NCBI RefSeq assembly: GCF_000735435.1
Contig: NZ_JMPP01000014.1
Location: 310,001-374,000 of the forward strand
Source: Klebsiella planticola ATCC 33531
Lineage (GTDB): Bacteria > Pseudomonadota > Gammaproteobacteria > Enterobacterales > Enterobacteriaceae
DNA length: 64,000 nt
Direction of reading: 5' to 3'
The notes under the pieces are model-generated. The model ran no database searches. It had not been told where the DNA came from and saw only the letters and a program-made list of their open reading frames with translations. The position numbers and the translations under genes were made by a program. Of the stretch, positions 7,130-31,304 are shown one piece after another. Each line of letters opens with the position of its first letter. Position 1 is the first letter of the stretch.

Positions 7130-8395
7130 TTGAACAGGCAGTTGAGCCCTGTGCTATTGGCGTCGCTGCTGCTTGTAGGATGCTCCGGAACGCTTTCACA
7201 AATGAGCGTCCCCTCAGATGAAACCAGCCTGGTCGGGCAAAATAGCCATGTTCTGCCCATCGATGCGTTCGTCAGCCGCTATATGCAACGCAAGCAGGTC
7301 AGCGGCGTGGTGGTGGCGATCATTCATCACAACGGTCCGGCGGAGTTCCACTGCTATGGTGTGACCGATGCCAAAAACCGTTATCCCATTACCCCGGATA
7401 CGCTCTTTGCACTGGGTTCGCTGAGTAAAGGCACCACCGCCGAGGTGATAACCCTGCTGGTCAACGAGGGGCGACTGCACTGGGACGATACGCTACTGAC
7501 GTTGTTACCGCCGGGTACGCCGCTGAGTGATGACGCGAAAAAAATCACCTTGTTGCAGCTGGTGACGCACACTTCAGGCCTGCCGCGCCAGCCGATGAAC
7601 CTGCTGTCGCTTGAGCATTTGCTGGTTTATCTGAGTGATGGCGAAAATTTCTATCACGAACTGGATAATGAGCGGGTACTGAGTTACCTGAGCACCTTTA
7701 ACGCGCCGCTGAGCCATGAGCCGGAATACTCCAATCTGGGCTACGCAATTCTGGGTTATATCCTTACCTATCAGACCGGCGAATCCGTTGCGGCGCTGGC
7801 CTCAAGGATGATTTTCCAGCCGCTGGCGATGAGAAATAGCAGCTATCTTCCGCAGACCCTGCGCGAATATCCCCGGCGGGCCCTCGGCCATGCCGGCGAC
7901 CAGCCGAAGTTTAAACCTCGCGGCGCGCTTACGCCGGACTGGCAGTTCAGCAACAATATGGTCGGAGCGGCGAACCTGTACAGCGATGCTCGCGATCTGA
8001 TCGAATACGCCCGCGCCCATTTTTCTCCGACCCAACATGCCGCGCTGGATAAGGCTTTTGCCGACGTCAGCGTTGATTACTATCCGCGGGAAAAAGAGGC
8101 GGCCAATATCGCCTGGGTGACCGATACCCTCGCTGGGCAAAGAATCACCTATCAGGTGGGTTATATCGGTGGCTATTCCAGCTATATCGGTTTTGATAAG
8201 GCTAATCAGAATGCGGTGGTGGTGCTGCAAAACAGCTTTAACTGGAGTAACTACATCGGCCACGCTATTTTGCAAAATCGGCTATCAGCACCGTCGGTAA
8301 GTCCCCCTCTGTCTGGCGAACAGGTCAACCCCTGTAGCGGATATGACAGCGTATACCAACGTCCCCCGTTGTCTGAGCGGTCCTCACACCTGTAG
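7130..8395 (+). CDS. Serine hydrolase / beta-lactamase family lipoprotein
   Basis: A 421-residue member of the class C beta-lactamase/DD-peptidase-like serine hydrolases. A signal peptide ends in a lipobox (LLVG followed by Cys18), so the mature protein is a lipoprotein. The catalytic Ser97-Leu-Ser-Lys100 tetrad (SxxK) and Tyr200-Ser-Asn202 (YxN) are in place, and the third element is represented by the glycine-rich GYIGGYSSYIG. It starts at a TTG codon with AAGG about six bases upstream. It is a single gene with no AmpR-type neighbour, so a peptidoglycan or esterase role is more likely than antibiotic resistance; activity cannot be deduced. Confidence 0.82.
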   Translation: MNRQLSPVLLASLLLVGCSGTLSQMSVPSDETSLVGQNSHVLPIDAFVSRYMQRKQVSGVVVAIIHHNGPAEFHCYGVTDAKNRYPITPDTLFALGSLSKGTTAEVITLLVNEGRLHWDDTLLTLLPPGTPLSDDAKKITLLQLVTHTSGLPRQPMNLLSLEHLLVYLSDGENFYHELDNERVLSYLSTFNAPLSHEPEYSNLGYAILGYILTYQTGESVAALASRMIFQPLAMRNSSYLPQTLREYPRRALGHAGDQPKFKPRGALTPDWQFSNNMVGAANLYSDARDLIEYARAHFSPTQHAALDKAFADVSVDYYPREKEAANIAWVTDTLAGQRITYQVGYIGGYSSYIGFDKANQNAVVVLQNSFNWSNYIGHAILQNRLSAPSVSPPLSGEQVNPCSGYDSVYQRPPLSERSSHL

Positions 8396-8493
8396 GCGCG
8401 TCCCGTCACTCTCCTGAAGACTGAGTAAATGGATTTCTATCTACATGATAAATAATGTTTTTATTTTTACTCTGTCTTCTTGAATATCTTTTG

Positions 8494-8509
8494 TGTGATG
8501 CATAGCACA
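8494..8509. promoter_or_regulatory. CRP-cAMP binding site upstream of the PTS operon
   Basis: TGTGATGCATAGCACA matches the CRP consensus TGTGA-N6-TCACA at nine of ten positions. It lies about 60 bases upstream of a plausible transcription start for the PTS genes, a class I-like position. This fits catabolite control of a sugar operon. Confidence 0.75.
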
Positions 8510-8526
8510 AAAAAAAGCCAGCGCTA

Positions 8527-8553
8527 TTGAAGCAAGTTCGTACCAGGTATAGC
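8527..8553 (+). promoter_or_regulatory. Candidate sigma-70 promoter of the PTS operon
   Basis: TTGAAG (8527-8532) and TATAGC (8548-8553) with a 15-base spacer, between the CRP site and the palindrome at 8569-8592. The hexamers match the consensus only moderately (four of six each), as expected for an activator-dependent promoter. Confidence 0.4.
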
Positions 8554-8568
8554 TTTAAATCACTTGAA

Positions 8569-8592
8569 CATGGTTGTACATAGACAACCATG
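8569..8592. promoter_or_regulatory. Inverted repeat, probable operator of the PTS operon
   Basis: Perfect nine-base inverted repeat CATGGTTGT/ACAACCATG with a six-base spacer, just downstream of the candidate promoter. It contains TTGTACATA, shared in eight of nine positions with TTGTTCATA at 13608-13616 in front of the GntR-family gene, so it is likely the target of that regulator. Confidence 0.6.
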
Positions 8593-8646
8593 ACTGACAG
8601 TAGATATGTTACACGCAAATCTCTCACCGGGACCCGAGGTGTTTTT

Positions 8647-9111
8647 ATGTCCATTGCAACCAGTCTTGATAACGATTTTATATTGCTAAACCACCCTGGG
8701 GGTGAGCGTGAAACGTTGTTTGGCGAGGTAGGCAACCTGCTCTATAGGCATGGCTTTGTCGAAAGTACTTATCTTTCTGCCTTAATCAGCAGGGAAGAAA
8801 ATAATCCGACGGCGATGCAACTGGAGAGAATTGGTGTCGCGATTCCTCATGTGGATGTTGAGCATATTAAAGAGGAAAAACTGGTTGTAGTGACCTGCCC
8901 GGAAGGGATTGAATTTAAGCAGGCAGAAGATCCCGATGAAGTTATGTCGGTACAGGTTATATTTTTCCTGCTGTTAAAAGAAAAAGATGCGCATATTGAT
9001 TTTCTCATGAAAATGATCGGCTTGTTCAGACAAACTGACAAGATGGATGCGATTTTAAAAGCCAGTTCACCTTCAGTGGTGAAGACACTCCTCGAAGAAG
9101 TCATTAATTAA
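8647..9111 (+). CDS. PTS sugar transporter subunit IIA (fructose/galactitol-type EIIA)
   Basis: A 154-residue EIIA of the PTS_EIIA_2 fold, most like the galactitol enzyme GatA in length and layout. The phosphorylated histidine is His68 in the motif GVAIPHVD. It accepts phosphate from an HPr and passes it to the IIB protein encoded next. An in-frame ATG exists at 8590, inside the inverted repeat, but GAGGT at 8636-8640 fits the ATG at 8647. It is the first gene of the five-gene unit IIA-IIB-IIC-kinase-dehydrogenase. Base composition is AT-richer than the flanking chromosomal genes. Confidence 0.9.
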   Translation: MSIATSLDNDFILLNHPGGERETLFGEVGNLLYRHGFVESTYLSALISREENNPTAMQLERIGVAIPHVDVEHIKEEKLVVVTCPEGIEFKQAEDPDEVMSVQVIFFLLLKEKDAHIDFLMKMIGLFRQTDKMDAILKASSPSVVKTLLEEVIN

Positions 9112-9150
9112 AATAGCAACTACACCTGATAAATGTACCCGGAGATTACG

Positions 9151-9432
9151 ATGAACAAGAAAATTATTTTTGCATGTACCAGTGGTATCGCTACTTCCGC
9201 CGTAGCAACAGAGAAAGTTGTTCAGTATTGTAAAAGCCAAGGTATTAATGTTGACCCCATTCAGTCAAATATCGGAACTATTGGTAAACAGGACGGTATG
9301 GCTGATTTAATTATTGTTACTTCAGCGGTAAAAACCGAACTGACCACCCCGGTTTTGAATGGCCTTCCACTTCTGACCGGTTTTGGTGAAGAAGAGTTAC
9401 TGGAAAAAATCGTAGCCATCCTTAAAAAATAA
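9151..9432 (+). CDS. PTS sugar transporter subunit IIB (galactitol-type EIIB)
   Basis: A 94-residue cytoplasmic EIIB. The phosphocysteine is Cys9 in the P-loop-like motif FACTSGIATSAVATEKV, the arrangement of the GatB/lactose-like IIB fold. It receives phosphate from EIIA and phosphorylates the incoming substrate with EIIC. The start at 9151 has GGAG upstream; an ATG at 9133 would place that site inside the gene. It lies 39 bases after the IIA gene and eight bases before the IIC start. Confidence 0.9.
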   Translation: MNKKIIFACTSGIATSAVATEKVVQYCKSQGINVDPIQSNIGTIGKQDGMADLIIVTSAVKTELTTPVLNGLPLLTGFGEEELLEKIVAILKK

Positions 9433-9440
9433 AGGTGAGC

Positions 9441-10838
9441 ATGATGGATAAAGTATTTTCCGCAGTCCAGTTTATTCTGGGGCTCGGTCCGACGATCATG
9501 TTGCCGATAATTATTTTTATTATGGCAATGTGCCTGCAGACCGGTTTTAGCCGGGCATTACGCTCGGCCCTGACAATCGGTATGGGCTTCATCGGCATCT
9601 TCCTGGTCTTTGGTTTACTGGTCGATAGCCTTGGCCCGGCGGCGAAAGAGATGGTTAGCCACACCGGCATTGATTTACCGGTCGTCGATCTGGGCTGGAC
9701 ACCGCTTGCGGCTATTGCCTGGGCTTCACAGGTCGCGCCGTTTGTCGTGCCGATGACCATCGGTATCAACGTACTTATGTTAACCCTGAACTGGACTAAA
9801 ACGGTCGATATTGATGTCTGGAATTTCTGGCACTTCTCTATGGTCGGCGCCATGGTATATGGAGTTACCGGCAGCTTCTTCTTCGGGTTACTGATTGCCG
9901 GCGTGACGGCGGCTATCACCTTTGTGATGGCGGACTGGTGCGCGCCGATGATCCAGAAATACTTCAATCTACCTGGGATTTCACTGCCCACATTGTCGTC
10001 CGTCATCTTCTTCCCGATCGGCGTGCTGGGAAATATGGTGCTTGATAAAATCCCTGGTATTAACAAGCTGAATGCTGATCCGGAACAGATCCAGAAACGA
10101 TTTGGTGTTTTCGGCGAGCCGATGATGTTAGGGGTGATTCTGGGGGCAGGTATTGGTCTGCTGGCAGAATACGACCTGAAAGGTGTGTTGAACCTGGCTA
10201 TGAGCCTTGGGGCAGTCATGCTGATTATGCCGCGGATGGTAAAACTGTTGATGGAAGGGCTGTTGCCATTATCAGATGCCGTCAGAAGTTTCCTGCGTAA
10301 GCGTTATCCAGACCGTCACGATCTTTATATTGGTCTCGACATTGCGGTCGCCGTGGGTCACCCATCCGTACTGTCGACCGCTCTGTTACTGATTCCGGTT
10401 GGGGTGCTCCTTGCCGTTATTCTGCCAGGCAACAGACTGTTACCGTTGGGCGATCTGGCTAATATTTGGGTACCAATATCGATGGTTGTACTGGCCTGTC
10501 GTGGGAATATTGTCAGAGCATTTATTATCGGTATTCCTTGTCTTGCTGTGAACCTGTATGTGGCATCAGCGGCGGCGCCGATTCTGACTAAAATTGCCCG
10601 AGATATGAATTTCCCCATCAAAACCGATGGTGAAATATCAAGTCTGCTTGATGGCGGTAACCCTTATCGGTTCTGGGCGGTGAAAGTCTTTGAAGGTAAT
10701 GGAATTGCTTTGGCTCTTATCCCGGTCATATTCCTGTTATGTCTGTGGCTCTATCGTGTAACGAAAAAACAGCTTCAGGCAGAAGAGGCGGCTGAAAATA
10801 CAGAAGTCTCGACGAGTGATATTCCGCTAGCGAAATAA
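9441..10838 (+). CDS. PTS galactitol-type transporter subunit IIC
   Basis: A 465-residue polytopic inner-membrane permease of the EIIC-GAT family, with about ten or more hydrophobic segments from MDKVFSAVQFILGLGPTIML onward. The long conserved block ISLPTLSSVIFFPIGVLGN and LDKIPGINKLNADPEQIQ resemble galactitol permease GatC. It would phosphorylate its substrate, probably a polyol, during import. AGGTGA lies just upstream of ATGATG at 9441/9444; a GTG at 9435 is a less likely start. The substrate is not inferable, since the family also serves other hexitols and pentitols. Confidence 0.9.
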   Translation: MMDKVFSAVQFILGLGPTIMLPIIIFIMAMCLQTGFSRALRSALTIGMGFIGIFLVFGLLVDSLGPAAKEMVSHTGIDLPVVDLGWTPLAAIAWASQVAPFVVPMTIGINVLMLTLNWTKTVDIDVWNFWHFSMVGAMVYGVTGSFFFGLLIAGVTAAITFVMADWCAPMIQKYFNLPGISLPTLSSVIFFPIGVLGNMVLDKIPGINKLNADPEQIQKRFGVFGEPMMLGVILGAGIGLLAEYDLKGVLNLAMSLGAVMLIMPRMVKLLMEGLLPLSDAVRSFLRKRYPDRHDLYIGLDIAVAVGHPSVLSTALLLIPVGVLLAVILPGNRLLPLGDLANIWVPISMVVLACRGNIVRAFIIGIPCLAVNLYVASAAAPILTKIARDMNFPIKTDGEISSLLDGGNPYRFWAVKVFEGNGIALALIPVIFLLCLWLYRVTKKQLQAEEAAENTEVSTSDIPLAK

Positions 10839-10846
10839 TCCTGCTG

Positions 10847-10877
10847 ATTCTGAGGCAGAGATGTTCTGCCTCAGAAT
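10847..10877 (+). other. Perfect intercistronic hairpin between the IIC and kinase genes
   Basis: Thirteen-base perfect arms ATTCTGAGGCAGA/TCTGCCTCAGAAT with a five-base loop, nine bases after the IIC stop and followed by an A-run instead of a T-run. It is therefore not an intrinsic terminator on this strand. Such hairpins can protect upstream mRNA or mark processing sites, giving different levels of transporter and enzymes; that role is inference. Confidence 0.6.
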
Positions 10878-10917
10878 AAAAACAAACTATGTCCCTTGCA
10901 AAAAGAAGGGGAGAGTA

Positions 10918-12432
10918 ATGTATACGATCGGAATCGATGTTGGTACGACAAATTGTAAGGTGTGTTTGTTTCAGGTTCCTTCGCTTGATTTAATTGAACA
11001 GTATAGTTTCAGGACCGCCAAACTTATTGATGGCGATAATACCGATTTTGACGTCCGCCTGATATGGGAGGGTATTGTCCATGGCCTGAAAACGATAACT
11101 GGTAATCGACCCGATGTGACAGATATCCGCGCCGTTGCTGTTGCCAGCGTTGGGGAAGCCGGCGTGTTGCTCGATGAGTATGATAATATTATTGGGCCAT
11201 CTTTAACCTGGTATGATACCCGGCCAAAACGGCAGCTGGAGAGTATTATTTCGGCTGTGGATGTTGAAAGTATATATGAAATAACCGGTATCCCGGCGCA
11301 TTCAAATTACAGTATTAATAAAATTAGATGGTTGCATGACAATATTAAAAATGCCGCAGATGGAACAAAGTGGCTGTGTCTTGCCGAATATATTGCCTTT
11401 AAATTGTCAGGCATAAAACGCTCGGAGTACTCCCTGGCCTCGCGGACCATGGCATTGAATATCACGGAGAGAGGTTGGGACGAAACGATGCTGGCCGCGG
11501 CCAAACTTTCCCCATCCCTGTTTAGCCCGCTGGTTCATGCCGGAACGTCGATAGGCCATATCACCCCAGAGGTTGCCGGCCTCACCGGGCTGGCGGACGA
11601 TGTGCAGGTTGCCATTGCCGGGCATGATCATATGTGTGGTTCTGTCGCCGTCGGCTTGAATAACGAAAACCAAATATTGAATTCTACCGGCACCACGGAA
11701 GGATTGTTGGTGGTGACCGAGGCCGTCAACAACAGCAGAAGCTTTTTCCGTGCCAGGGTCTCTAACGGGGTCCATGTTTTGCCGGGGCTTCATTCACTGT
11801 ATGCTTCGCTGCCTTCGGCTGGCTACGCCATTGAATGGTTCAGAAACCTGTTTGAACTCGATATGCCTGCTTTTCTGCGCATGGTGGATACGCTGAGAAA
11901 TGAAAAAGATCGGGTTGTTGCAGGCTCACTGGACGGCATTTTTATTCCTCATTTGCGGGGTAGCGGGCCGCCGGACAGGAATACCTGGTCCAGGGCGTTG
12001 ATTTATGGACTTGATGATAAATCCCGGCCTGAAGATGTTCTGCGCTTCGTTTTCCAGGGCTTGTGTTTTGAACTGAAAAATCTTCTCGATTTGTATGAAA
12101 CCCTGACAGGGCGCCACTACCCGGTCGTCAACGTCATTGGTGCGGCGTGTAAAAACCCCTACTGGCTACAGCTGAAAGCAAACATTCTGAACAGGGAAAT
12201 TGTCGCCTGTAATGTCGATGAGGCCGTGAGCAAAGGGGCGGCAATGCTGGCGGCAAAAGCCGTCGGAGTGGATATGGATAACTGTGCCCTCACCGCGCCG
12301 GCAGAGCTGAAAAATTATCGGCCAGAGCCTGAGGTTGTCGCACATTATCAGCAAATTTTTAGCCAGGTGTATAAACCGCTTTATGAATCCAAGATGCGTG
12401 CTGAGCATCTTTGTTATGGAGTTAGCCAATGA
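10918..12432 (+). CDS. FGGY family carbohydrate kinase
   Basis: A 504-residue ATP-dependent sugar kinase of the FGGY (xylulokinase/fuculokinase) family. The N-terminal phosphate-binding segment is MYTIGIDVGTTNCKVCLF; the mid-protein blocks IAGHDHMCGSVAVG and LNSTGTTEG and the C-terminal VIGAACKNPYWLQLKANI are family landmarks. It would phosphorylate a free sugar, polyol or sugar phosphate that arises in this pathway. The start at 10918 is preferred because GGGAGAG lies just upstream; the frame is open to 10861. Its stop overlaps the next gene by four bases. An FGGY kinase beside a complete PTS is unusual, since PTS import already phosphorylates. Confidence 0.87.
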   Translation: MYTIGIDVGTTNCKVCLFQVPSLDLIEQYSFRTAKLIDGDNTDFDVRLIWEGIVHGLKTITGNRPDVTDIRAVAVASVGEAGVLLDEYDNIIGPSLTWYDTRPKRQLESIISAVDVESIYEITGIPAHSNYSINKIRWLHDNIKNAADGTKWLCLAEYIAFKLSGIKRSEYSLASRTMALNITERGWDETMLAAAKLSPSLFSPLVHAGTSIGHITPEVAGLTGLADDVQVAIAGHDHMCGSVAVGLNNENQILNSTGTTEGLLVVTEAVNNSRSFFRARVSNGVHVLPGLHSLYASLPSAGYAIEWFRNLFELDMPAFLRMVDTLRNEKDRVVAGSLDGIFIPHLRGSGPPDRNTWSRALIYGLDDKSRPEDVLRFVFQGLCFELKNLLDLYETLTGRHYPVVNVIGAACKNPYWLQLKANILNREIVACNVDEAVSKGAAMLAAKAVGVDMDNCALTAPAELKNYRPEPEVVAHYQQIFSQVYKPLYESKMRAEHLCYGVSQ

Positions 12433-13463
12433 AAGCCAGCGTCTACTACAGCAAAAATGATATTCGTTATGAAGATATCGCGGTGCCTGAAATAGGCGAT
12501 GGCGATATGCTCATTAAAATGCACTCCTGCGGTCTGTGCGGCACTGATATTCATAAGGCGCAGCACCAGACCGTAACGGGGCCTGTTATTCTCGGCCATG
12601 AAGTCTCTGGCGAAGTTGTGAAGGTCGGGAAAAACGTGACCCGCTACCGCGTGGGCGAACGCGTGGTAACCGCTATTCACGTTCCTTGTTTTAACTGCCA
12701 CTACTGCGACAGAGGATATTTTACCCTCTGCGATCAATTTAAAAAAACCAATCTTGAGCCCGGTGGTTTCAGTGAGTTCATTCGTATCCCTCAGCTACAC
12801 GTTGAGCATCTGACGCATCGAATTGTGGAGCAACTCGACTGGGATCGTGCGGCGATGATCGAACCGGTGGCCTGTTGTTTACATGGTCTGAAATTAGCAA
12901 ATATCCATGCAAAAGATACGGTGCTGGTATTGGGTTCCGGCACCATTGGCCTGGTCAGCGCACAGCTTGCCGCGCTGAAGGGGGCATCAACCGTCATCGT
13001 TTCCGACCTTTCGCGCTTCAAACGTGAACTGGCGTTGAAAATCGGCGTAACCCATGCGATCGACCCGGCGAATGAAGATCTTGAAACGCGGGTAGCTGAA
13101 ATAACCGATTGGAAAGGGCCCGACGTGGTGATTATTGCGGCCGGCGTGTCGTCATTAGTTTCTCAGGCGGTGAACGTGGTGCGGCGGGGAGGTCGGGTCG
13201 TTGTATTCTCGCCATTTGATAAAAACCCGGTGGTGGAAATTGATGCCGGACGCCTGTTCCGGGATGAAATATCCATCGTTGGCACATACTCCCTCACCCC
13301 TTACGACATGAAAGAAGCGATTGAGATCGTTGAAAAAGACAAAATCAATACCAGAGAGATGATCACGCATACCTGGCCTCTTTCTCGTCTTGAAGAAGCA
13401 ATTGAGTTTGCGGCAAATCCTGAAAACGACGTACTGAAAATAATTATTAAATCTGAGGGTTAA
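12429..13463 (+). CDS. Zinc-dependent alcohol dehydrogenase (medium-chain, sorbitol/galactitol-1-P dehydrogenase-like)
   Basis: A 344-residue medium-chain dehydrogenase. Catalytic zinc ligands are Cys37 (GLCGTD) and His57-Glu58 (GHE); the structural zinc cysteines are Cys87, Cys90, Cys93 and Cys101; the NAD-binding motif is VLVLGSGTIGLVSAQ. It most probably oxidises a polyol or polyol phosphate to the ketose, as GatD does in galactitol breakdown. It overlaps the kinase gene by ATGA, so the two are translationally coupled. It is one of two dehydrogenases in the island; the other starts at 15711. Confidence 0.88.
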   Translation: MKASVYYSKNDIRYEDIAVPEIGDGDMLIKMHSCGLCGTDIHKAQHQTVTGPVILGHEVSGEVVKVGKNVTRYRVGERVVTAIHVPCFNCHYCDRGYFTLCDQFKKTNLEPGGFSEFIRIPQLHVEHLTHRIVEQLDWDRAAMIEPVACCLHGLKLANIHAKDTVLVLGSGTIGLVSAQLAALKGASTVIVSDLSRFKRELALKIGVTHAIDPANEDLETRVAEITDWKGPDVVIIAAGVSSLVSQAVNVVRRGGRVVVFSPFDKNPVVEIDAGRLFRDEISIVGTYSLTPYDMKEAIEIVEKDKINTREMITHTWPLSRLEEAIEFAANPENDVLKIIIKSEG

Positions 13464-13484
13464 GCGGGGGAGCCCCTTCCCGCT
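13463..13484 (+). other. Hairpin at the end of the first PTS unit
   Basis: AGCGGG/CCCGCT stem directly after the dehydrogenase stop codon. No T-run follows, so it is a weak candidate for a 3'-end structure; a second small hairpin GTAAC/GTTAC lies at 13514-13528. Confidence 0.35.
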
Positions 13485-13555
13485 CAACGGTCGGGAGGGG
13501 GCCGATATGCCACGTAACGCTTTGTTACAGGGAGAACAGGGGGTTGGGCTGAAAC

Positions 13556-13571
13556 TGTGAAGTTGATCATA
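13556..13571. promoter_or_regulatory. CRP site upstream of the GntR-family gene
   Basis: TGTGAAGTTGATCATA matches TGTGA-N6-TCACA at eight of ten positions. A candidate -10 TATTAT lies at 13596-13601, which puts the CRP site near -44, a class II-like position. The motif TTGTTCATA follows at once. Confidence 0.6.
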
Positions 13572-13607
13572 TAGTTAGATTTTTAAAAAACTCTGTATTA
13601 TCGTAAC

Positions 13608-13626
13608 TTGTTCATACTTGTATACA
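13608..13626. promoter_or_regulatory. Probable GntR-family operator
   Basis: TTGTTCATACTTGTATACA contains TTGTTCATA, nearly the TTGTACATA of the operator at 8574-8582, followed by the palindrome TGTATACA at 13619-13626. Its place just after the -10 element suggests autorepression by the regulator encoded at 13653. Confidence 0.5.
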
Positions 13627-13652
13627 GATGATCTACACAGGAGAAGCACAAC

Positions 13653-14390
13653 ATGAGCACCATACTGAAAGATTCAGAAATTCCGTTGTATATGCAGGTT
13701 TCTGAATGGATCCGTGAAAACATCTATAAAGGGGAGCTGGGCAAAGGCGATCGTATTCCTTCTGAGAATCAGATTATGGAAATACTGCAGGTCAGCCGGG
13801 GCACCGTAAAGAAAGCGGTCACCATGCTGGTCAATGAAGGTTTGCTGGTCCAGGTTCAGGGGAAGGGGACATTTGTAAAAAAAGAAAATATTTCTTATGC
13901 CCTTGGCGAAGGTTTATTGTCTTTTGCTGAATCACTTGAAAGTCAGCATTTGTCATTTACTACTGAAGTTATTACTTCATATATTGAGAAAGCGTCGAAA
14001 AGTGTTGCCGAGAAATTAAGAATTGAGCCTGGCGCGCCTATTCTTTACCTTAAACGTGTACGTAGCGTGGAAGGTGAGAGAGTGATGCTGATTGAAAACA
14101 GAATCAACATTGCACTCTGCCCTGGAATTACTGATGTTGACTTTAATAAACAAAATTTGTTTCCAACGGTTGAAGAGTTATCTGGTCAAAAAATTGTCTA
14201 TTCGGAAAGCCGTTATGCAGCAAAAATTGTTGGTAGCGAACGTGGTCATTATTTAGAAGTCAATGAAGATGCCCCCGTTTTGCACCTCGAACAACTTGTT
14301 TTCCTTGAAAACAAAATGCCATTTGATTTAGGAAACGTCTGGTTAAAATCAGATAAATATTATTTAGGTACTATTCTTCAACGAAGATAG
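13653..14390 (+). CDS. GntR family transcriptional regulator (HutC/UTRA subfamily)
   Basis: A 245-residue regulator. The winged helix occupies about residues 8-75 (IPLYMQVSEWIRENIYKG, then RIPSENQIMEILQVSRGTVK and VQGKGTFV); the UTRA ligand-binding domain follows (about 90-240), ending with the usual LGNVWLKSDKYYL block. UTRA regulators of sugar operons typically respond to a phosphorylated sugar. AGGAGA sits eight bases before the start. It opens the second unit of the island (regulator, aldolase, HPr) and probably controls both units through the shared TTGTnCATA motif. Confidence 0.9.
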   Translation: MSTILKDSEIPLYMQVSEWIRENIYKGELGKGDRIPSENQIMEILQVSRGTVKKAVTMLVNEGLLVQVQGKGTFVKKENISYALGEGLLSFAESLESQHLSFTTEVITSYIEKASKSVAEKLRIEPGAPILYLKRVRSVEGERVMLIENRINIALCPGITDVDFNKQNLFPTVEELSGQKIVYSESRYAAKIVGSERGHYLEVNEDAPVLHLEQLVFLENKMPFDLGNVWLKSDKYYLGTILQRR

Positions 14391-14401
14391 AGGATAATGC
14401 T

Positions 14402-15262
14402 ATGCCATTAGTTAACGGTAAAATCTTGCTGGATCGTATCCGCGAGAAACGTGTACTTGCCGGTGCATTCAATACCACGAATCTGGAAACCACCATCTCG
14501 ATTCTCAATGCTATTGAGCGCTCAGGGTTACCAAACTTCATCCAGATTGCACCGACCAATGCGCAATTATCAGGCTATGACTATATTTATGAAATCGTTA
14601 AACGTCATGCTGATAAAATGGATGTGCCGGTTAGCCTGCACCTCGATCATGGTAAAACTTTTGATGATGTCAAACAGGCCGTACGGGCGGGTTTTACCTC
14701 CGTTATGATTGATGGCGCAGCATTTTCCTTCGAAGAAAACATTGCGTTCACCGCCGCTGCCGTTGATTTCTGTAAATCATATGGCGTTCCGGTTGAGGCT
14801 GAGCTGGGGGCGATTTTAGGTAAAGAAGACGATCATGTCAGCGAAGCCGACTGCAAAACGGAACCAGAAAAGGTACGGACATTTGTTGAACAGACCGGCT
14901 GCGATATGCTGGCTATCTCCATTGGCAACGTCCACGGTCTTGATGATGTCCCGCGTATTGATATTCCGCTGCTGCAGAGAATTGCTGAAGTCTCGCCGGT
15001 CCCTCTGGTCATTCACGGCGGTTCAGGAATTGACGAAGATATCCTGCGTAGTTTTGTGAACTATAACGTGGTCAAGGTGAATATTGCCAGCGATTTACGT
15101 AAAGCCTTTATTACCTCCGTTGGCAAAGCTTATCAACAGAACAATAACGAAGCCAATCTGGCACGAGTTATGGCATCGGCAAAACAAGCCGTTGAAGATG
15201 ATGTCTACTCTAAGATTCTTATGATGAATAAAGGGCATCAGTTTCTACGCCAGGCATCCTGA
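14402..15262 (+). CDS. Class II aldolase (tagatose-/fructose-1,6-bisphosphate aldolase family, GatY/KbaY-like)
   Basis: A 286-residue zinc-dependent aldolase, the usual length of the GatY/KbaY/FbaA class II family. Zinc and catalytic residues are visible: Asp82 and His83 in HLDHGKTFDDV, Glu132/Glu134 in VEAELGAILG, His178 in IGNVHG and His205 in IHGGSGI. It would cleave a ketose bisphosphate or ketose phosphate into dihydroxyacetone phosphate and an aldehyde. The usual GTAHG is GNVHG here, so the substrate may differ from tagatose-1,6-bisphosphate. A GAGG ribosome site lies eight bases upstream, 11 bases after the regulator gene. Confidence 0.9.
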   Translation: MPLVNGKILLDRIREKRVLAGAFNTTNLETTISILNAIERSGLPNFIQIAPTNAQLSGYDYIYEIVKRHADKMDVPVSLHLDHGKTFDDVKQAVRAGFTSVMIDGAAFSFEENIAFTAAAVDFCKSYGVPVEAELGAILGKEDDHVSEADCKTEPEKVRTFVEQTGCDMLAISIGNVHGLDDVPRIDIPLLQRIAEVSPVPLVIHGGSGIDEDILRSFVNYNVVKVNIASDLRKAFITSVGKAYQQNNNEANLARVMASAKQAVEDDVYSKILMMNKGHQFLRQAS

Positions 15263-15285
15263 AAATTATTAGAGCTAAGTGAATT

Positions 15286-15555
15286 ATGATTAGACAAAGC
15301 GTCAGAGTCGTCAACAGTACCGGACTTCACGCCAGGCCAGCGGCCACTCTTGCCCGGATCGTGAAGAAATATACCTCATCATTAACGCTGGTCAATGAAG
15401 GGCGAGAGATTCAGATAAAAGGCATGATGAGTATTCTTGGTGCTGGCGTAAAGGGTAATACCATGATTGATATTATCTGTAATGGCGAGGATGAACATGA
15501 ATTAATGAGTGAATTAAAAACTGCTTTCGCTGCGGGCTTTGGCGAAAAAGAGTAA
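15286..15555 (+). CDS. HPr family phosphocarrier protein
   Basis: An 89-residue HPr-like protein. The phosphorylatable His15 is in the canonical setting STGLHARPAA. The regulatory serine position 46 is glycine (IKGMMSI), so control by HPr kinase is not possible and was not expected in this group of bacteria. A dedicated HPr in a PTS operon suggests that phosphate from enzyme I is channelled to the local EIIA. It follows the aldolase gene by 23 bases. Confidence 0.92.
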   Translation: MIRQSVRVVNSTGLHARPAATLARIVKKYTSSLTLVNEGREIQIKGMMSILGAGVKGNTMIDIICNGEDEHELMSELKTAFAAGFGEKE

Positions 15556-15583
15556 TTCACGAAATAAATTATGCCCCTGTATT

Positions 15584-15659
15584 TTGGGTGAGATTCACAT
15601 CAGCAACAGAGGCTCGCTTATGCAGCCTCAACGGCTTTCTGTTGTCGTTTCTCACCCAA
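15584..15659 (+). other. Nested inverted repeats upstream of the second dehydrogenase gene
   Basis: A perfect ten-base inverted repeat TTGGGTGAGA (15584-15593) and TCTCACCCAA (15650-15659) encloses an inner hairpin GAGGCT/AGCCTC (15609-15614 and 15624-15629). The 155 bases between the HPr stop and the dehydrogenase start hold no convincing gene. The transcript could fold into a long hairpin that affects readthrough or translation of the dehydrogenase gene; this is inference. Confidence 0.5.
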
Positions 15660-15710
15660 TGGCTCACTCGCTTTATGACTCTCATTCACTTTTTATCCGG
15701 GAGTGATGAT

Positions 15711-16766
15711 ATGAAAGCATTAAATCTTTATTCGCGACAGGATGTGAGATATGAAGAGACGATCCAACCCGACATTGAAAATGATGACGATGTTTTAATT
15801 AAGGTCCAGGTTGCGGGCATCTGTGGCTCCGATATTTCTCGTTTTGGCAAACTGGGATCTTATAACCCTGGGCTGACCTGGGGGCACGAATTTTCTGGTG
15901 AAGTGGTGAAAACCGGTCCTGCTGTGAAGGAAGTGAAAAATGGCGATCGCGTGACGGCCTGTAATTGCTTCCCCTGTTTTCGATGCAAATATTGCCAACA
16001 AGGGCGCTATTCGCAGTGCATCGATCTCAACGTTCTCGGGGGACATAAAAACGGCGCTTTTGCTGAATATATTGTGGTGCCGTCGCGTAATGTTTTACTT
16101 CTGCCTGCGACCATGGATTTTGCGACGGCAAGCTTTATTGAACCTTCCAGCGTAGTGGTACACGCTCTACGCCAGGTCGATATGAAAGTTGGCTGCCGGG
16201 TGGCGGTGGTTGGCTGCGGTACCATCGGGCTGCTGGCAGTACAGTGGGCCCAGGTCTGTGGTGCCGGGGAAGTATTTGCTTTTGATACCGATCGAAAGAA
16301 GCTCGATATCGCCAAAGAGACCGGGGCCAGAGATGTTTTCTCGGTCGAGGATGAAGGCTATCTGTCCCGTTTTCATGAGCTCACAGAAAGCTCCGGCGTA
16401 GATATCGTTATTGAGTCTTCAGGGCATCCCGCGGGGATTGCCAGCGCAATGCTTCTGGCGGCGAAAGGTGGGGCCGTGGTCCTCCTGGGTATTCCTTATG
16501 GCGACGTCGCTTTCCCCCGGCTTAACTTTGAGAAAATCATCCGCAATGAAATTAAAGTGCTGGGTTCGTGGAATTCTATTTCAGCGCCTTTTCCAGGCCC
16601 GGAGTGGGAAACATCGATTAAGTACCTCAGTTCCGGCGTCATTGATGTTCAGCCTTTAATCACTAAACGCGTCGCGCTTAAAGATGTTCCGGCTATTTTT
16701 CCCGGGTTATATCAGCGGGAAACGTTTTTTGTAAAAGTCCTGATTGAGATAGGCGATAGCGCCTGA
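15711..16766 (+). CDS. Zinc-dependent alcohol dehydrogenase (second copy in the PTS island)
   Basis: A 351-residue medium-chain zinc dehydrogenase related to galactitol-1-phosphate 5-dehydrogenase and sorbitol dehydrogenase. Catalytic ligands Cys38 (GICGSD) and His59-Glu60 (WGHE), structural cysteines 89, 92, 95 and 103, and NAD motif VAVVGCGTIGLLAVQ are present. GGGAG seven bases upstream selects this ATG; the frame is open from 15588. It is clearly different from the dehydrogenase at 12429, so the pathway probably has two oxidation steps or takes two polyols. A 155-base structured gap separates it from the HPr gene. A terminator-like hairpin follows at 16791. Confidence 0.88.
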   Translation: MKALNLYSRQDVRYEETIQPDIENDDDVLIKVQVAGICGSDISRFGKLGSYNPGLTWGHEFSGEVVKTGPAVKEVKNGDRVTACNCFPCFRCKYCQQGRYSQCIDLNVLGGHKNGAFAEYIVVPSRNVLLLPATMDFATASFIEPSSVVVHALRQVDMKVGCRVAVVGCGTIGLLAVQWAQVCGAGEVFAFDTDRKKLDIAKETGARDVFSVEDEGYLSRFHELTESSGVDIVIESSGHPAGIASAMLLAAKGGAVVLLGIPYGDVAFPRLNFEKIIRNEIKVLGSWNSISAPFPGPEWETSIKYLSSGVIDVQPLITKRVALKDVPAIFPGLYQRETFFVKVLIEIGDSA

Positions 16767-16790
16767 AGGTATCACGCAATGAGGTTTAAA

Positions 16791-16812
16791 AGCCCCGTGA
16801 GAACACGGGGCT
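16791..16812 (-). terminator. Intrinsic terminator of gor (possibly bidirectional)
   Basis: Nine-base GC-rich stem AGCCCCGTG/CACGGGGCT with a four-base loop. On the minus strand it is followed by TTTTAAA, as expected seven bases after the gor stop. It may also stop transcription from the PTS island. Confidence 0.85.
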
Positions 16813-16819
16813 GAGAGGA

Positions 16820-18172
16820 TTAACGCATGGTTACGAACTCTTCCGCGGCCGTCGGGTGAATCGCCACGGTATTGTCGAAGTCCTTCTTGGTGGCGCCCAT
16901 TTTCAGCGCCACCGCAAAGCCCTGCAGCATTTCATCCATGCCGAAGCCGATACCGTGAATGCCGACAATCTTCTCTTCCGGGCCGACGCATACCAGCTTC
17001 ATGCGGCACGGCTGGCGGTGCGAGGTCACGGCGGTATACATGGCGGTGAAAGCGGATTTATAGACCTTCACGGCGTCATCGCCATACTGCTCGCGCGCCT
17101 GCGGCTCGGTTAAACCGACGGTGCCGATCGGCGGATGGCTGAAGACTACGGTCGGGATATTGCTGTAATCCAGATGCTCTTCCGGCTTGTTGTTGAACAG
17201 GCGTTCAGACAGACGACGACCCGCCGCTACCGCCACCGGCGTCAGCTCCACCGCCCCGGTGTTATCGCCCACGGCATAGATCCCCGGCACGTTGGTGTTC
17301 TGGAATTTATCCACCACGATATAGCCTTGGTCGTTGGTTTTTACGCCAGCGGCTGCGAGGTTGAAATTATCGGTCTCCGGCTCACGCCCAATGGCCCAGA
17401 TCAGGCAATCCACGGTCTGACTCCGGCCATCTTCCAGCTGAAGCGTCAGGCTGCCGTCCGAGTTTTTCACTACCGCTTGCGGAATGGCGTGAGTGTGCAG
17501 CTGCGGCCCTTCGCTGTTCATCACTTCGACCAGGGTATCGACGATCAGCGGATCGAAGCTGCGCAGCGGCGCATGTTTACGCACGAACAGGTGCGTTTCG
17601 GCGCCGAGGCCGTTAATGACGCCAGCCAGCTCAACGGCAATATAGCCTGCGCCCACCACGGCGACGCGCTTCGGCAGGGCCGGCAGCTCGAAGAAGCCGT
17701 TAGAGTCGATGCCGTACTCAACGCCCGGAATAGACGGATGGCTCGGACGGCCGCCGGTGGCGATCAGGATATGATCGGCGGTGATCGTTTCGCCATTCAC
17801 TTCCACGGTTTTGGCATCCACAAAACGGGCGAAGCCTTTGATGACATCAACCTTGTTTTTGCCTAACACGTTGTCGTAGGAGGTGTGGATACGGTCGATA
17901 TACGCGCTGCGGCTGGCCACCAGTTTGTCCCAGTCGAAGTGGTTAATCGTGGTATCGAAACCGTAGTCCGGGCCATACAGATGAATCGCTTCGCGAATCT
18001 GCGCCGCATGCCACATGATTTTCTTCGGTACGCAGCCGACGTTGACGCAGGTGCCGCCCAGATCTTTAGCTTCAATCAGCGCGCACTTCTGGCCATACAT
18101 TGCCGCACGGTTGATGGAGGCGATGCCGCCACTGCCGCCGCCGATAGCGATGTAATCATAATGTTTGCTCAT
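16820..18172 (-). CDS. gor: Glutathione reductase
   Basis: Cytoplasmic FAD enzyme that reduces glutathione disulfide with NADPH. At 450 residues it has the family length. The FAD-binding motif [13 protein letters not shown] is at the N terminus, the redox-active pair is Cys42 and Cys47 ([13 protein letters not shown]), the NADPH-binding motif [13 protein letters not shown] is central, and the catalytic histidine lies in the C-terminal HPTAAEE. The order gor, rlmJ, prlC matches E. coli. Start and stop are unambiguous. Confidence 0.98.
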
Positions 18173-19305: not shown

Positions 19306-20577
19306 ATGAAATTGCAAATCACACTCCTGACCTCAGCGTTGATCCTGGCGCTGCCGGCCCTGGCGAAAGAGGTTCCGCTGAACCAGGCGGCAGCGATCGC
19401 CGGTAGCGTGACGCCAGCGGCGGCCAGCCCGGCGTTTGACGATCTTGAAGGTCAGACGCTGGCGCAGCTGCGCGCTGCGCTGAAGGGCGATGCCGCCACG
19501 CTCACCCGCGGTCAGCTCGCGCACGCAAAACAGAATAAAACCCAGGCGGATAAGGCCTGGCTGAAGGCCAGCGGCTACGATTTCCAGGAGAAAGCGAATC
19601 AGCAGGCGGGTATCGCGCTGCTTGCCGCCTTCAGCACGCTCCCGGATTCGGTGGTGAAGGATAACCTGGCTACGGTGACCGCAATTAATCGCGATGCGAC
19701 GCAGGCGACCCGCCATCAGGCGCTGGCGGATGCGGAAGGGATTAGCTATCTCTATTTCCTCAGCGATGCGCTGGGTCCGCGGCTCGGCAAAGCCTTCCTC
19801 ACGGCCTACGACAAAGGTGAGCTGGGTAAAGCGGCGGCGCTGATTAAGGCCAGTGAAGTCAGTACGGGGGCGGCGAAAAAGCATTATAACAATCCGCGCC
19901 CGTTCCTGATCCAGGGCAATACCATTCATCTGGTGCCGGACGATGTGGTGATAAAGGACAACCAGCCTTACACCGCCGACGGAGGTTCCTTCCCCAGCGG
20001 ACACACCAACACCGGCTACACCGATGCGCTGCTGATGGCGGAAATGATCCCGGAGCGCTTTGATGCGCTGGTGACCCGCGGCGCGCGCTACGGCTATTCC
20101 CGCATCGTGCTTGGCGTACATTACCCGCTGGATGTGATGGGTTCGCGGATGGTGGCGCAGCGTAATGTCGCGCATTACCTCAACGACGCGAAGTATCGTG
20201 CGCTGTTCAATGAAGCGCGCGATCAGCTGCGGACGGCGCTGGAAAAAGAGTGCGCGACCTCACTGGCCGAGTGCGCGAAGCCGGCCGGAAAAGATGACCC
20301 GTACCGCGACCCGGCGATGAACGCATTTTACGCGTTCACCATGACCTACAACCTGCCGCAGCAGAAGGGGGAGAAATCAGCTCTGACGGTGCCGGAAGGC
20401 GCAGAGGTTCTGCTGGAGACCGCGCTGCCGCATCTGTCCGCCGCCCAGCGCCGGGCGCTGATGGTGAAAACCGCGCTTCCGGCGGGTTATCCGCTGTCGG
20501 GCGAGACCGCCGACCAGCAGTTCTGGCAGCGGGTGAATCTGCCGGCGGCATATCAGATGGCGCAGAAAGCACATTAA
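19306..20577 (+). CDS. PAP2-type acid phosphatase, secreted
   Basis: A 423-residue phosphatase of the PAP2/class A non-specific acid phosphatase family. A signal peptide (MKLQITLLTSALILALPALA) directs it to the periplasm. The three active-site motifs are complete: Lys191-x6-Arg198-Pro199, Pro-Ser-Gly-His233 in GGSFPSGHT, and Ser265-Arg266-x5-His272-x3-Asp276. It is much longer than PhoN/PhoC enzymes (about 250 residues), with an extra N-terminal region of about 150 residues and a C-terminal extension of about 140. It is a single gene between rlmJ and prlC; the substrate is unknown. Confidence 0.87.
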   Translation: MKLQITLLTSALILALPALAKEVPLNQAAAIAGSVTPAAASPAFDDLEGQTLAQLRAALKGDAATLTRGQLAHAKQNKTQADKAWLKASGYDFQEKANQQAGIALLAAFSTLPDSVVKDNLATVTAINRDATQATRHQALADAEGISYLYFLSDALGPRLGKAFLTAYDKGELGKAAALIKASEVSTGAAKKHYNNPRPFLIQGNTIHLVPDDVVIKDNQPYTADGGSFPSGHTNTGYTDALLMAEMIPERFDALVTRGARYGYSRIVLGVHYPLDVMGSRMVAQRNVAHYLNDAKYRALFNEARDQLRTALEKECATSLAECAKPAGKDDPYRDPAMNAFYAFTMTYNLPQQKGEKSALTVPEGAEVLLETALPHLSAAQRRALMVKTALPAGYPLSGETADQQFWQRVNLPAAYQMAQKAH

Positions 20578-30039: not shown

Positions 30040-31053
30040 TCAGCTCAGACCAAGAAAGTGCTGGGCGATTTTGAAGTAGATAATCAGCCCGGTGCCATCA
30101 ATCAGCGTGGCGATAAACGGCGCGGAGACGACCGCCGGGTCGATGCCCACGCGCTTAAGCGTCAGAGGGATCACTGACGATACCACCGCGCTCCACAGCG
30201 TAATACATACCAGCGTCAGGCTGACAATCAGGGTGATCTCCATGCCAATGCCCATCATCCAGGCGCGCAGGCAGCCCGCCAGACCGAGAGTGATGGCAAT
30301 CAGCAGCGACGTCGTCATCTCTTTACGAATCACCCGGCCCATATCGCGCAGGCGGACTTCCCCGAGCGCCATGGAACGGACCAGCGTGGAGGTGATCTGC
30401 GTACCGCTGTTACCGCCGGTACCGATCAGCAGCGGAATAAAGAAGGCCAGCGCAATGGCCGATTCCAGCGCCTCTTCAAAATGTTGAATGACGCTGCTGG
30501 TGTAGGCTTCCGCGACGAACAGCAGCAATAACCACACCGAACGTTTTTTCCACAGCGTCCACGGGCTGATCTCCAGATAGGGCTTATCCAGCGGGAGCGT
30601 TGCGCCCTGGCGATGCACATCTTCGGTGACGTCGTCTTCCAGCAGATGGGCAATCTCTTTCTCCATCAGGCAGCCGACCAGTTCGCCTTTTTCAACCACC
30701 GGCACCAGGTCGAGTCCGCGCTCGCTCAGTTCGGCGACCACCTCCTGACGCTCATCATCGGGCTTCACGCGAAACAGGCAGCTGTCCATCAGATAGCGAA
30801 TGGATTGCGCCGTATCGCTCTCCTGAAGCAGCTTTTTAATCGATAAACTGCCGCGCAGCTTCTTTCCGGCCACCACAAAGACCTGGCCTGGAATATCATC
30901 GCTGGTGAGCTGCGAGACAAAGAGCTCCCGCGCTTCATAGACGCTGAGGTGCTCGGGCAGAGTGATAAAATCGGTACGCATGTACTGGGCGATCGCATCG
31001 CCGTCGAAGGCGGAAGTGGCCAGATGCGCGGCGCAGTGTTGCATTGAAGACAT
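30040..31053 (-). CDS. Magnesium transporter of the MgtE family, without the N domain
   Basis: A 337-residue MgtE-type Mg2+ channel. Two CBS domains occupy about residues 25-80 (MRTDFITLPEHLSVYEA) and 88-145, followed by five transmembrane helices from about residue 168. The pore motif TGGNSGTQ and the pore aspartate in IATLIDGTGLIIY are conserved. Full-length MgtE proteins have about 450 residues with a superhelical N domain before the CBS pair; that domain is missing. An M-box riboswitch precedes it, which supports Mg2+ control. The start at 31053 has AGGG nine bases upstream; ATG 31044 is an alternative. Confidence 0.9.
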   Translation of the reverse strand: MSSMQHCAAHLATSAFDGDAIAQYMRTDFITLPEHLSVYEARELFVSQLTSDDIPGQVFVVAGKKLRGSLSIKKLLQESDTAQSIRYLMDSCLFRVKPDDERQEVVAELSERGLDLVPVVEKGELVGCLMEKEIAHLLEDDVTEDVHRQGATLPLDKPYLEISPWTLWKKRSVWLLLLFVAEAYTSSVIQHFEEALESAIALAFFIPLLIGTGGNSGTQITSTLVRSMALGEVRLRDMGRVIRKEMTTSLLIAITLGLAGCLRAWMMGIGMEITLIVSLTLVCITLWSAVVSSVIPLTLKRVGIDPAVVSAPFIATLIDGTGLIIYFKIAQHFLGLS

Positions 31054-31086: not shown

Positions 31087-31114
31087 GCGAACAAGACAGG
31101 ATGAGCACAGGCAG

Positions 31115-31288
31115 ATCCCTACGTCCTGGTTTTAGCACTGCACAACGTATCTGTCCGGCATGAATGCCGTCAGAAGTTACCTTGGCAACACCTTGATTCG
31201 ATGGATGCCTGTATTTCCCTGAGTGGTCTCTCTCGATACCAGCAGGGCGGTAACTTGTATTTGTGCAGGAGCCTCGCCATAACGAGAT
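31115..31288 (-). ncRNA. M-box (ykoK leader) magnesium riboswitch
   Basis: The minus-strand leader has the M-box landmarks in order: GTTATGGCGAGGCTCCTG near the 5' end, ACCGCCCTG, a mid-region with GGCATTCATGCCGG, and CAGTGCTAAA (31140-31131) at the 3' side. ATCTCGTTATGG (5' end) pairs with CCAGGACGTAGGGAT (3' end) to form the closing helix. M-boxes sense Mg2+ in front of mgtE-like genes in other bacteria, and the gene downstream is such a transporter. Boundaries are set by the closing helix. Confidence 0.85.
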
Positions 31289-31304
31289 CGTTAAATGAGC
31301 GGCC

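What the first reader, a model, noticed from the sequence alone, without database searches (positions are those of the whole stretch)
8494..16766. AT-rich PTS island with private HPr, FGGY kinase, two polyol dehydrogenases and a class II aldolase
Seen: galactitol-type IIA, IIB and IIC, an FGGY kinase, two different zinc dehydrogenases, a UTRA regulator, a GatY-like aldolase and an HPr, all on one strand. Known: in galactitol catabolism the PTS gives galactitol-1-P, GatD gives tagatose-6-P, a PfkB-type kinase gives the bisphosphate and GatYZ cleaves it. Here no PfkB-type kinase is present, an FGGY kinase takes its place, no GatZ-like subunit is seen, and two dehydrogenases are supplied. FGGY enzymes normally use free sugars, so either this one phosphorylates a sugar phosphate or a second, unphosphorylated intermediate is produced. 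The island looks imported: 13921-13980 has 19 G+C in 60 bases against 39 in 60 at 20041-20100. I think this is a complete catabolic pathway for an unassigned polyol.
Basis: partly seen in the sequence, partly recalled or inferred. Interest (0 to 1): 0.75.

Follow-up and report, generated by a model that had tools for sequence, protein, structure and literature searches.

The report
Unassigned PTS sugar-alcohol pathway island
A block of nine genes, acquired from elsewhere, looks like a complete pathway for taking in and splitting a sugar or sugar alcohol whose identity I could not find in print, and a shorter, equally unnamed version sits in about three in ten complete E. coli genomes.

Summary
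In detail: IIA, IIB, IIC, FGGY kinase, Zn-dehydrogenase DH1, GntR/UTRA regulator, class II aldolase, HPr and a GatD-like dehydrogenase DH2, all on + at 8647-16766, 47.0% G+C against 58.4% elsewhere. A sister genome has the site empty. The cassette recurs in other Enterobacterales at several sites; two Orbus-like genomes lack HPr and DH2; a compact E. coli form lacks both dehydrogenases and is found (at least 80% of it) in 1615 of 5426 genomes. One operator core is shared by 12 distinct loci, E. coli included. It is probably not the galactitol route: 5 of 11 carrier genomes also hold a separate gat operon. Best reading: a polyol enters as a phosphate, DH1 makes the ketose phosphate, the FGGY kinase adds a second phosphate, the aldolase cuts the bisphosphate. 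Caveats: these aldolases lack the DPR arginine that most displayed bisphosphate aldolases have, and four cassettes carry a SurE phosphatase, so a free-sugar route stays open. No reaction was measured; the substrate is unknown. New variant of a known kind.

The parts
8279..16788 (.). inserted island, approximate limits
   Evidence: blastn of flanks to the empty site in G947/L092: left homology ends at window ~8279, right starts at ~16788; no shared repeat of 9 bases or more between 8201-8500 and 16701-16850
8489..8512 (.). CRP-like palindrome TTTTGTGTGATG/CATAGCACAAAA (reads TGTGA-N6-GCACA)
   Evidence: inverted repeat, 83% complementary; CRP consensus recalled; binding not tested
8570..8591 (+). 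probable operator of the island's GntR/UTRA regulator, ATGGTTGTACATAGACAACCAT
   Evidence: only match in the window at up to 3 mismatches, 0 in 100 shuffles; core present once in each of 12 distinct cassette loci, both E. coli loci included
8581..8610 (+). promoter-like TAGACA-18-TATGTT overlapping the operator
   Evidence: 15 promoter-like sites in the region against a mean of 12.4 in shuffles, so weak on its own
8647..9111 (+). IIA, PTS_EIIA_2, His in GVAIPH
9151..9432 (+). IIB, galactitol type, Cys in CTSGIATS
9435..10838 (+). IIC, EIIC-GAT
   Evidence: TIGR00827 454 bits, under its 542 cut-off; PF03611 297.5 bits, over its cut-off
10918..12432 (+). FGGY kinase of an unnamed subfamily
   Evidence: over both Pfam FGGY cut-offs; under the cut-off of each of the 12 NCBIfam models it hits (best XylB 232 against 380)
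12429..13463 (+). DH1, Zn-dependent medium-chain dehydrogenase; start overlaps the kinase stop
13653..14390 (+). GntR/UTRA regulator
   Evidence: 70% identical to the regulator of the compact E. coli cluster
14402..15262 (+). class II aldolase, NCBIfam NF005943 (PRK07998), named only 'class II aldolase'
   Evidence: 544.6 bits against cut-off 364
15286..15555 (+). private HPr with LHARP active-site motif
15711..16766 (+). DH2, GatD-like Zn dehydrogenase
   Evidence: GatD model 259 bits against cut-off 550; nearest solved structure by sequence E. coli GatD 4a2c; start codon

Best explanation
This is a horizontally acquired PTS catabolic cassette, under its own GntR regulator and probably CRP, for a polyol (and its ketose) that is probably not galactitol. 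EI and the private HPr phosphorylate IIA, IIA phosphorylates IIB, and IIC brings the polyol in as a terminal phosphate. DH1 oxidises it to a ketose phosphate; DH2 probably lets in a second isomer, or the other phosphorylated end, to the same intermediate. The FGGY kinase then phosphorylates C1 of that ketose phosphate, giving a ketose bisphosphate, and the class II aldolase cuts it to dihydroxyacetone phosphate and an aldose phosphate. The compact E. coli cluster runs the same last steps on a ketose taken up directly. Shown here: gene content, conservation, shared operator sequence, insertion, and co-existence with gat operons. Inferred: each reaction, their order and the substrate class. Stereochemistry and chain length are unknown.
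For: Gene set and families. GntR, IIA, IIB, IIC, kinase and aldolase are in 13 of 13 loci compared, DH1 in 12, HPr in 11, DH2 in 9. At least 80% of the E. coli form without dehydrogenases is present in 1615 of 5426 genomes. The operator core occurs once in 23 of 99 loci held; these are 12 distinct cassettes (window, L009-L016, L094, E. coli L017 and L018) and repeats of them. At seven positions equivalent to glycerol contacts of E. coli GlpK (positions recalled) all 13 kinases are identical, G,E,W,N,D,H,G, though the E. coli kinase is 37% identical overall; none of XylB, FucK, RhaB, LsrK or GlpK has that set, which points to one shared, distinct specificity. The E. coli aldolase is 90% identical to the window's and groups with those of the window, L009, L014, L016 and L094 (support 94/100, just under the 95 mark), while its IIC (55%) and kinase (37%) are far off; so aldolases seem to have been exchanged between the two cluster types and probably do the same job, unless the enzyme is promiscuous. 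Precedent for a galactitol-type PTS with a polyol-phosphate dehydrogenase and a second, GatD-annotated gene: the Bacillus methanolicus arabitol cluster (PMC6685057, passages read).
Against: In 13 of 13 cassette aldolases NLA or NLI stands where 1gvf, 2fjk, 4to8, 7nc7, 3q94, 7ncc and E. coli GatY have DPR; YdjI, named as acting on an octuluronate 1-phosphate, also lacks it. That Arg is recalled as the C6-phosphate ligand, so the distal phosphate may be absent or placed differently. The correlation is not clean: 8q58, deposited as a ketose-bisphosphate aldolase, has DPE, and of two further class II aldolases in the window's genome one has DPR and one DSVRK. A basic R/K one residue on is kept in all 13. 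Known FGGY kinases use unphosphorylated substrates (recalled). Four cassettes carry a SurE phosphatase. The absence of a dehydrogenase from the E. coli cluster does not show that its substrate is a ketose; an enzyme elsewhere could serve. The Orbus-like loci lack the operator core. In the B. methanolicus precedent, adding the second dehydrogenase gene made no significant difference. No reaction was measured.
Confidence: 0.55

Rival explanations
1. Free-sugar branch. The PTS product loses its phosphate (SurE where present, a housekeeping phosphatase elsewhere), a dehydrogenase makes the free ketose, the FGGY kinase makes the ketose 1-phosphate in the usual FGGY way, and the aldolase releases DHAP and an unphosphorylated aldehyde, as in the FucK/FucA, RhaB/RhaD and YdjH/YdjI pathways.
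For: DPR missing from 13 of 13 cassette aldolases and from YdjI; SurE over its curated cut-off in 4 of 13 loci; FGGY family members use free sugars (recalled).
Against: SurE is not in the cassette in 9 of 13 loci; a PTS phosphate would be spent and then thrown away; in solved structures the aldolase is closer to the tagatose-bisphosphate aldolase 1gvf (5.9e-48) than to YdjI 6ofu (5.7e-40), though overall similarity does not settle the substrate.
Confidence: 0.25
2. An alternative galactitol or other ordinary hexitol route: galactitol-1-phosphate to tagatose-6-phosphate to tagatose bisphosphate, with an FGGY enzyme standing in for the tagatose-6-phosphate kinase.
For: IIABC are of the galactitol type; DH2's nearest solved relative by sequence is GatD; the window's genome shows no gat operon at its 5 other PF03611 loci and no GatD-model match at 1e-60 but DH2. 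In all, 6 of 11 carriers gave no match near the GatD cut-off.
Against: 5 of 11 carrier genomes hold a separate gat operon; in all five the gatD lies with gatA, gatB, a GAT IIC and gatY, and one of the Orbus-like genomes also has a LacC-type tagatose-6-phosphate kinase there (409.3 bits against 409.55; over the broader 1-PFK cut-off). DH2 is missing from 4 of 13 loci. DH1, DH2, the aldolase, IIA, IIB and IIC fall below the galactitol-family cut-offs.
Confidence: 0.1
3. A pentitol PTS (arabitol, xylitol, ribitol) like that of Bacillus methanolicus, feeding pentulose 5-phosphate to the pentose phosphate pathway, with kinase and aldolase for side products.
For: Same transporter type and a pair of dehydrogenase genes in the B. 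methanolicus cluster (PMC6685057, passages).
Against: Pentulose 5-phosphates need no kinase or aldolase (pathway knowledge), yet these two are in 13 of 13 loci while the dehydrogenases are not; none of the nine genes is a pentose-phosphate enzyme.
Confidence: 0.08

Closest known systems
Galactitol operon gatYZABCD of E. coli K-12 (L032) and gat operons of carrier genomes (L061-L065)
   Same: IIA, IIB and IIC of the GAT family, a Zn dehydrogenase for a polyol phosphate, a class II aldolase, PTS logic
   Different: No GatZ, FGGY kinase present, GntR/UTRA regulator, private HPr, extra dehydrogenase; IIC 39-41% identical to the IICs of L061-L065, aldolase 37% to KbaY
Compact E. coli cluster between nikR and yhhJ (CFT073 C_RS20230-C_RS20260; L017, L018)
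   Same: Same type of regulator (70%), operator core, IIABC, kinase subfamily, HPr, and a 90% identical aldolase
   Different: No dehydrogenase; kinase 37%, IIC 55% identical; also without a named substrate in the annotation beyond the generic galactitol-type IIC label
B. methanolicus arabitol cluster atlABCD
   Same: GAT-type IIABC with a polyol-phosphate dehydrogenase and a second, GatD-annotated dehydrogenase gene (passages of PMC6685057)
   Different: No FGGY kinase and no class II aldolase among the induced genes listed in the passages I read
E. coli ydjE-L cluster (YdjH kinase, YdjI class II aldolase, YdjJ and YdjL Zn dehydrogenases; L043)
   Same: Two Zn dehydrogenases, a sugar kinase and a class II aldolase without the DPR motif
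   Different: No PTS genes in the stretch seen; kinase of the PfkB type, not FGGY (recalled)

Membership tests
Galactitol (gat) operon | GAT-type IIA, IIB, IIC | tested here: inconclusive
   Pfam cut-offs met, but the NCBIfam galactitol IIA, IIB and IIC models are hit under their curated cut-offs (67 against 139, 61 against 95, 454 against 542)
Galactitol (gat) operon | GatD equivalog | tested here: not met
   DH2 259 bits, DH1 149 bits, cut-off 550
Galactitol (gat) operon | GatY aldolase with GatZ subunit | tested here: not met
   aldolase 234 bits against the GatY cut-off 383; none of the window's listed ORFs hits GatZ or KbaZ by blastp
Galactitol (gat) operon | substrate galactitol | not testable with these tools
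   indirect only: separate gat operons in 5 of 11 carriers
NCBIfam PRK07998 class II aldolase | score over the curated cut-off | tested here: met
   544.6 against 364; E. coli 557, Orbus-like 430
Ketose-bisphosphate aldolase | DPR motif with the distal-phosphate arginine (role recalled) | tested here: not met
   NLA or NLI in 13 of 13 cassette aldolases, R/K one residue later; but 8q58, so labelled, lacks it too, so the feature may not be defining
Ketose-bisphosphate aldolase | catalytic and zinc-site motifs (HLDH, HGL/F, HGGSG; roles recalled) | tested here: met
   13 of 13
Xylulokinase (XylB) | score over TIGR01312 cut-off | tested here: not met
   232 against 380.25
FGGY kinase superfamily | FGGY_N and FGGY_C domains, catalytic Asp | tested here: met
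   domains in the window; GHDHM in 13 of 13, its Asp aligned with GlpK D245
YdjI-type ketose-1-phosphate aldolase | acts without a distal phosphate | not testable with these tools
   shares the absence of DPR

The most novel reading that the evidence does not exclude
The kinase founds a new FGGY specificity that phosphorylates a sugar phosphate made by a PTS, and the aldolase, with its distal phosphate site rebuilt, cleaves a bisphosphate that is not an ordinary ketohexose 1,6-bisphosphate, for example a heptulose 1,7-bisphosphate from a plant heptitol or heptulose. This would be a PTS route for a class of sugar for which I know of none, carried by about 30% of complete E. coli genomes.
Probability: 0.15. 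Interest if true: 0.75.

Novelty: new variant of a known kind. Interest (0 to 1): 0.5.

Why it matters
An orphan sugar pathway shared by several Enterobacterales genera, Orbus-like bacteria and 1615 of 5426 complete E. coli genomes means a nutrient used by common bacteria is unidentified. If the FGGY kinase acts on a sugar phosphate it would extend a large, well-studied kinase family. The E. coli form, with one transporter, one kinase and one aldolase, makes the question testable with purified proteins and a sugar panel.

Tried and rejected
Galactitol as substrate: judged unlikely from co-occurring gat operons, but the window's own genome shows none, so it is not excluded for this strain.

Chance or annotation artefact: rejected. 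A mobile element as vehicle: none of the nine genes is a recombinase and no shared repeat of 9 bases or more was found between the two end stretches compared.

Literature: no paper in the held library has FGGY + galactitol + HPr + class II aldolase, FGGY + galactitol + PTS + dehydrogenase + bisphosphate aldolase, or FGGY + galactitol + phosphotransferase system; guessed CFT073 locus tags c4280-c4285 gave one unrelated paper (the tags are my estimate); two broader wordings listed five papers each, none of which, by title and start of abstract, is on this cluster. The FGGY family paper PMC3245297 was searched for six terms only: PTS, galactitol and tagatose do not occur. The library holds open-licence papers only, so absence there is weak evidence.

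Distal-phosphate residues: I found no held paper that states them (five papers not held), so the role of the DPR arginine is recalled; what I tested is its presence across sequences. The kinase contact positions taken from GlpK are recalled too.

Several regular expressions (structural-zinc cysteines, DH2 cysteine motif, IIA and IIB motifs for E. coli and Orbus-like rows) were badly written and returned NONE; one search repeated them in better form.

Rows left out: the CFT073 locus L017 was left out of the 13-locus tables because its kinase is annotated frameshifted; L018, intact, stands for E. coli. L023 repeats L015, and L093, L095, L096, L097 repeat L010, L013, L012, L011 (matching contig lengths, for L097 that of the genome to which assigned L011), so they were not counted twice. 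The record of L018 is filed as a plasmid of 4.9 Mb, evidently a chromosome.

Full report
1. The observation. The window holds nine collinear genes at 8647-16766: IIA, IIB, IIC, an FGGY kinase, a zinc dehydrogenase (DH1) whose start overlaps the kinase stop, a GntR/UTRA regulator, a class II aldolase, an HPr and a second zinc dehydrogenase (DH2). Active-site motifs of HPr, IIA, IIB, aldolase and kinase, and the structural-zinc cysteines of both dehydrogenases, are present in the window (roles recalled). G+C is 47.0% in 8396-16766 against 58.4% in the rest, and third-position G+C is 34-56% in the nine genes against 66-73% in the three neighbours measured.

2. It is an insertion. Among 20 genomes of the genus, 6 have a close relative of the IIC, the window's own included. 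G947, whose gor is 99% identical and one of whose contigs has the same length as a named Raoultella ornithinolytica contig, has the upstream serine-hydrolase gene directly beside gor; window homology breaks near 8279 and resumes near 16788. That same genome has a cassette elsewhere, of the kind that also carries SurE (L010). G943 has the cassette at the gor site (L094), as do the Superficieibacter and Buttiauxella loci (L009, L014). So related species carry two cassette types at different sites, which suggests more than one acquisition or exchange.

3. Anatomy across relatives. I compared 13 loci: the window, L009-L016 (the 8 loci), E. coli L018, G943 (L094) and two Orbus-like genomes (L024, L025). 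GntR, IIA, IIB, IIC, kinase and aldolase are in 13 of 13; DH1 in 12 (not E. coli); HPr in 11 (not the Orbus-like pair); DH2 in 9 (not L015, E. coli or the Orbus-like pair). A SurE-family phosphatase is in 4 (L010-L013), each over the curated SurE cut-off. In samples the cassette is rare: a kinase match at 1e-120 in 1 of 198 family genomes, the aldolase family over its cut-off in 4 of 394 order genomes and 1 of 369 class genomes, the window's own counted each time.

4. The E. coli form. Between nikR and yhhJ, CFT073 and others carry regulator, IIA, IIB, IIC, FGGY kinase, HPr and aldolase, with no dehydrogenase. Of 5426 complete E. coli genomes 1617 match, 1615 with at least 80% of the cluster in one place, the 1617 best places at 95% identity or more. 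K-12 MG1655 has rhsB and other genes there instead. In CFT073 the kinase is annotated as frameshifted; I did not study that further.

5. One regulatory family. A 22-base palindrome at 8570-8591 is the only match in the window with up to three mismatches, and 100 shuffles gave none. Its core occurs once in 23 of 99 loci held, which are 12 distinct cassettes (window, L009-L016, L094, L017, L018) and repeats of them; the other 76 loci have none, but several of those are pieces of cassettes without the upstream stretch. The Orbus-like loci lack the core; about 70 bases upstream of their regulators they have a looser TTGT-N6-ACAA-like palindrome, exact in L025 and with one mismatch in L024. The window's site overlaps a promoter-like match, and a CRP-like palindrome lies about 80 bases upstream. 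The E. coli regulator is 70% identical to the window's.

6. One kinase subfamily, one exchanged aldolase. At seven positions matching GlpK's glycerol contacts (recalled), all 13 kinases share G,E,W,N,D,H,G, and none of the five reference kinases printed there does; 113 of 504 residues are invariant overall. E. coli's aldolase is 90% identical to the window's and groups with those of the window, L009, L014, L016 and L094 (94/100, just short of the tool's 95 mark), apart from L010-L013 and L015; its IIC and kinase are 55% and 37% identical and fall outside even the Orbus-like rows, though on long branches. Most inner branches of these trees are open, so I rely on this one grouping and on the identities. 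The simplest reading is that both cluster types end in the same aldolase reaction.

7. Not the galactitol pathway, probably. Of 11 carrier genomes searched, three have a GatD over the curated cut-off and two (the Orbus-like pair, 530 and 524 against 550) lie just under it. In all five that gene sits with gatA, gatB, a GAT IIC and gatY, and with gatZ in three. In one Orbus-like genome the gat operon also has a LacC-type kinase (409.3 bits against a cut-off of 409.55), so the tagatose-6-phosphate kinase role seems filled beside the FGGY cassette. Against this, six carriers, the window's genome among them, showed no such GatD.

8. The mechanism. PTS uptake gives a phosphate at one end; class II aldolases of this kind make or cut a bond next to a DHAP unit (family knowledge), so a phosphate is needed at C1. 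The FGGY kinase is the only kinase in the E. coli form to put it there. That gives a bisphosphate unless the PTS phosphate is removed first. Two findings argue for removal or for an unusual distal end: NLA or NLI in place of DPR in 13 of 13 aldolases, where six solved class II aldolases displayed and GatY have DPR while YdjI does not; and the SurE gene in four cassettes. The first is weakened by 8q58, deposited as a ketose-bisphosphate aldolase but with DPE, and by a class II aldolase of the window's own genome with DSVRK. The R/K next to the lost arginine is kept throughout, which would suit a phosphate held slightly differently. I put the bisphosphate route at 0.55 and the free-sugar route at 0.25.

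9. Prior art. My paper searches found no description of this gene set or a substrate for it. NCBIfam names the aldolase family only 'class II aldolase'. Of PMC6685057 I read passages: a galactitol-type PTS with an arabitol-phosphate dehydrogenase and a further GatD-annotated gene, induced on arabitol; adding that gene made no significant difference to growth.

10. Verdict. It is a new variant of a known kind: a GAT-type PTS pathway with an FGGY kinase of its own subfamily. Its substrate is unassigned.

Noticed in passing
window 31110-31293 (-) with ORF 30040-31053 (-): M-box magnesium riboswitch (Rfam RF00380, 110 bits) upstream of a 337-residue ORF with CBS and MgtE domains.
   Followed up: partly
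L010-L013, e.g. L010:14701-15483: An extra SurE-family phosphatase gene inside the cassette between HPr and DH2, in four cassettes that are not at the gor site; two other non-gor cassettes (L015, L016) lack it.
   Followed up: partly
window 7130-8395: Beta-lactamase-fold serine hydrolase (best NCBIfam hits class C beta-lactamase and AmpH, far under their cut-offs) whose 3' end differs from the sister genome's at the island junction; in G941 only a remnant is seen.
   Followed up: no
L017 (CFT073) kinase of the compact cluster: The kinase is annotated as frameshifted in CFT073 while open in L018.
   Followed up: no
window 31837-36731 (-): A nik-like nickel ABC transporter operon lies about 15 kb from the island; in E. 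coli the compact cluster sits directly beside nikR. Named by resemblance of its ORFs to the E. coli ones, not tested.
   Followed up: no
L018 against the cassettes: Of the seven genes of the E. coli cluster only the aldolase is 90% identical to the window's (the next is the regulator at 70%), as if exchanged alone.
   Followed up: yes
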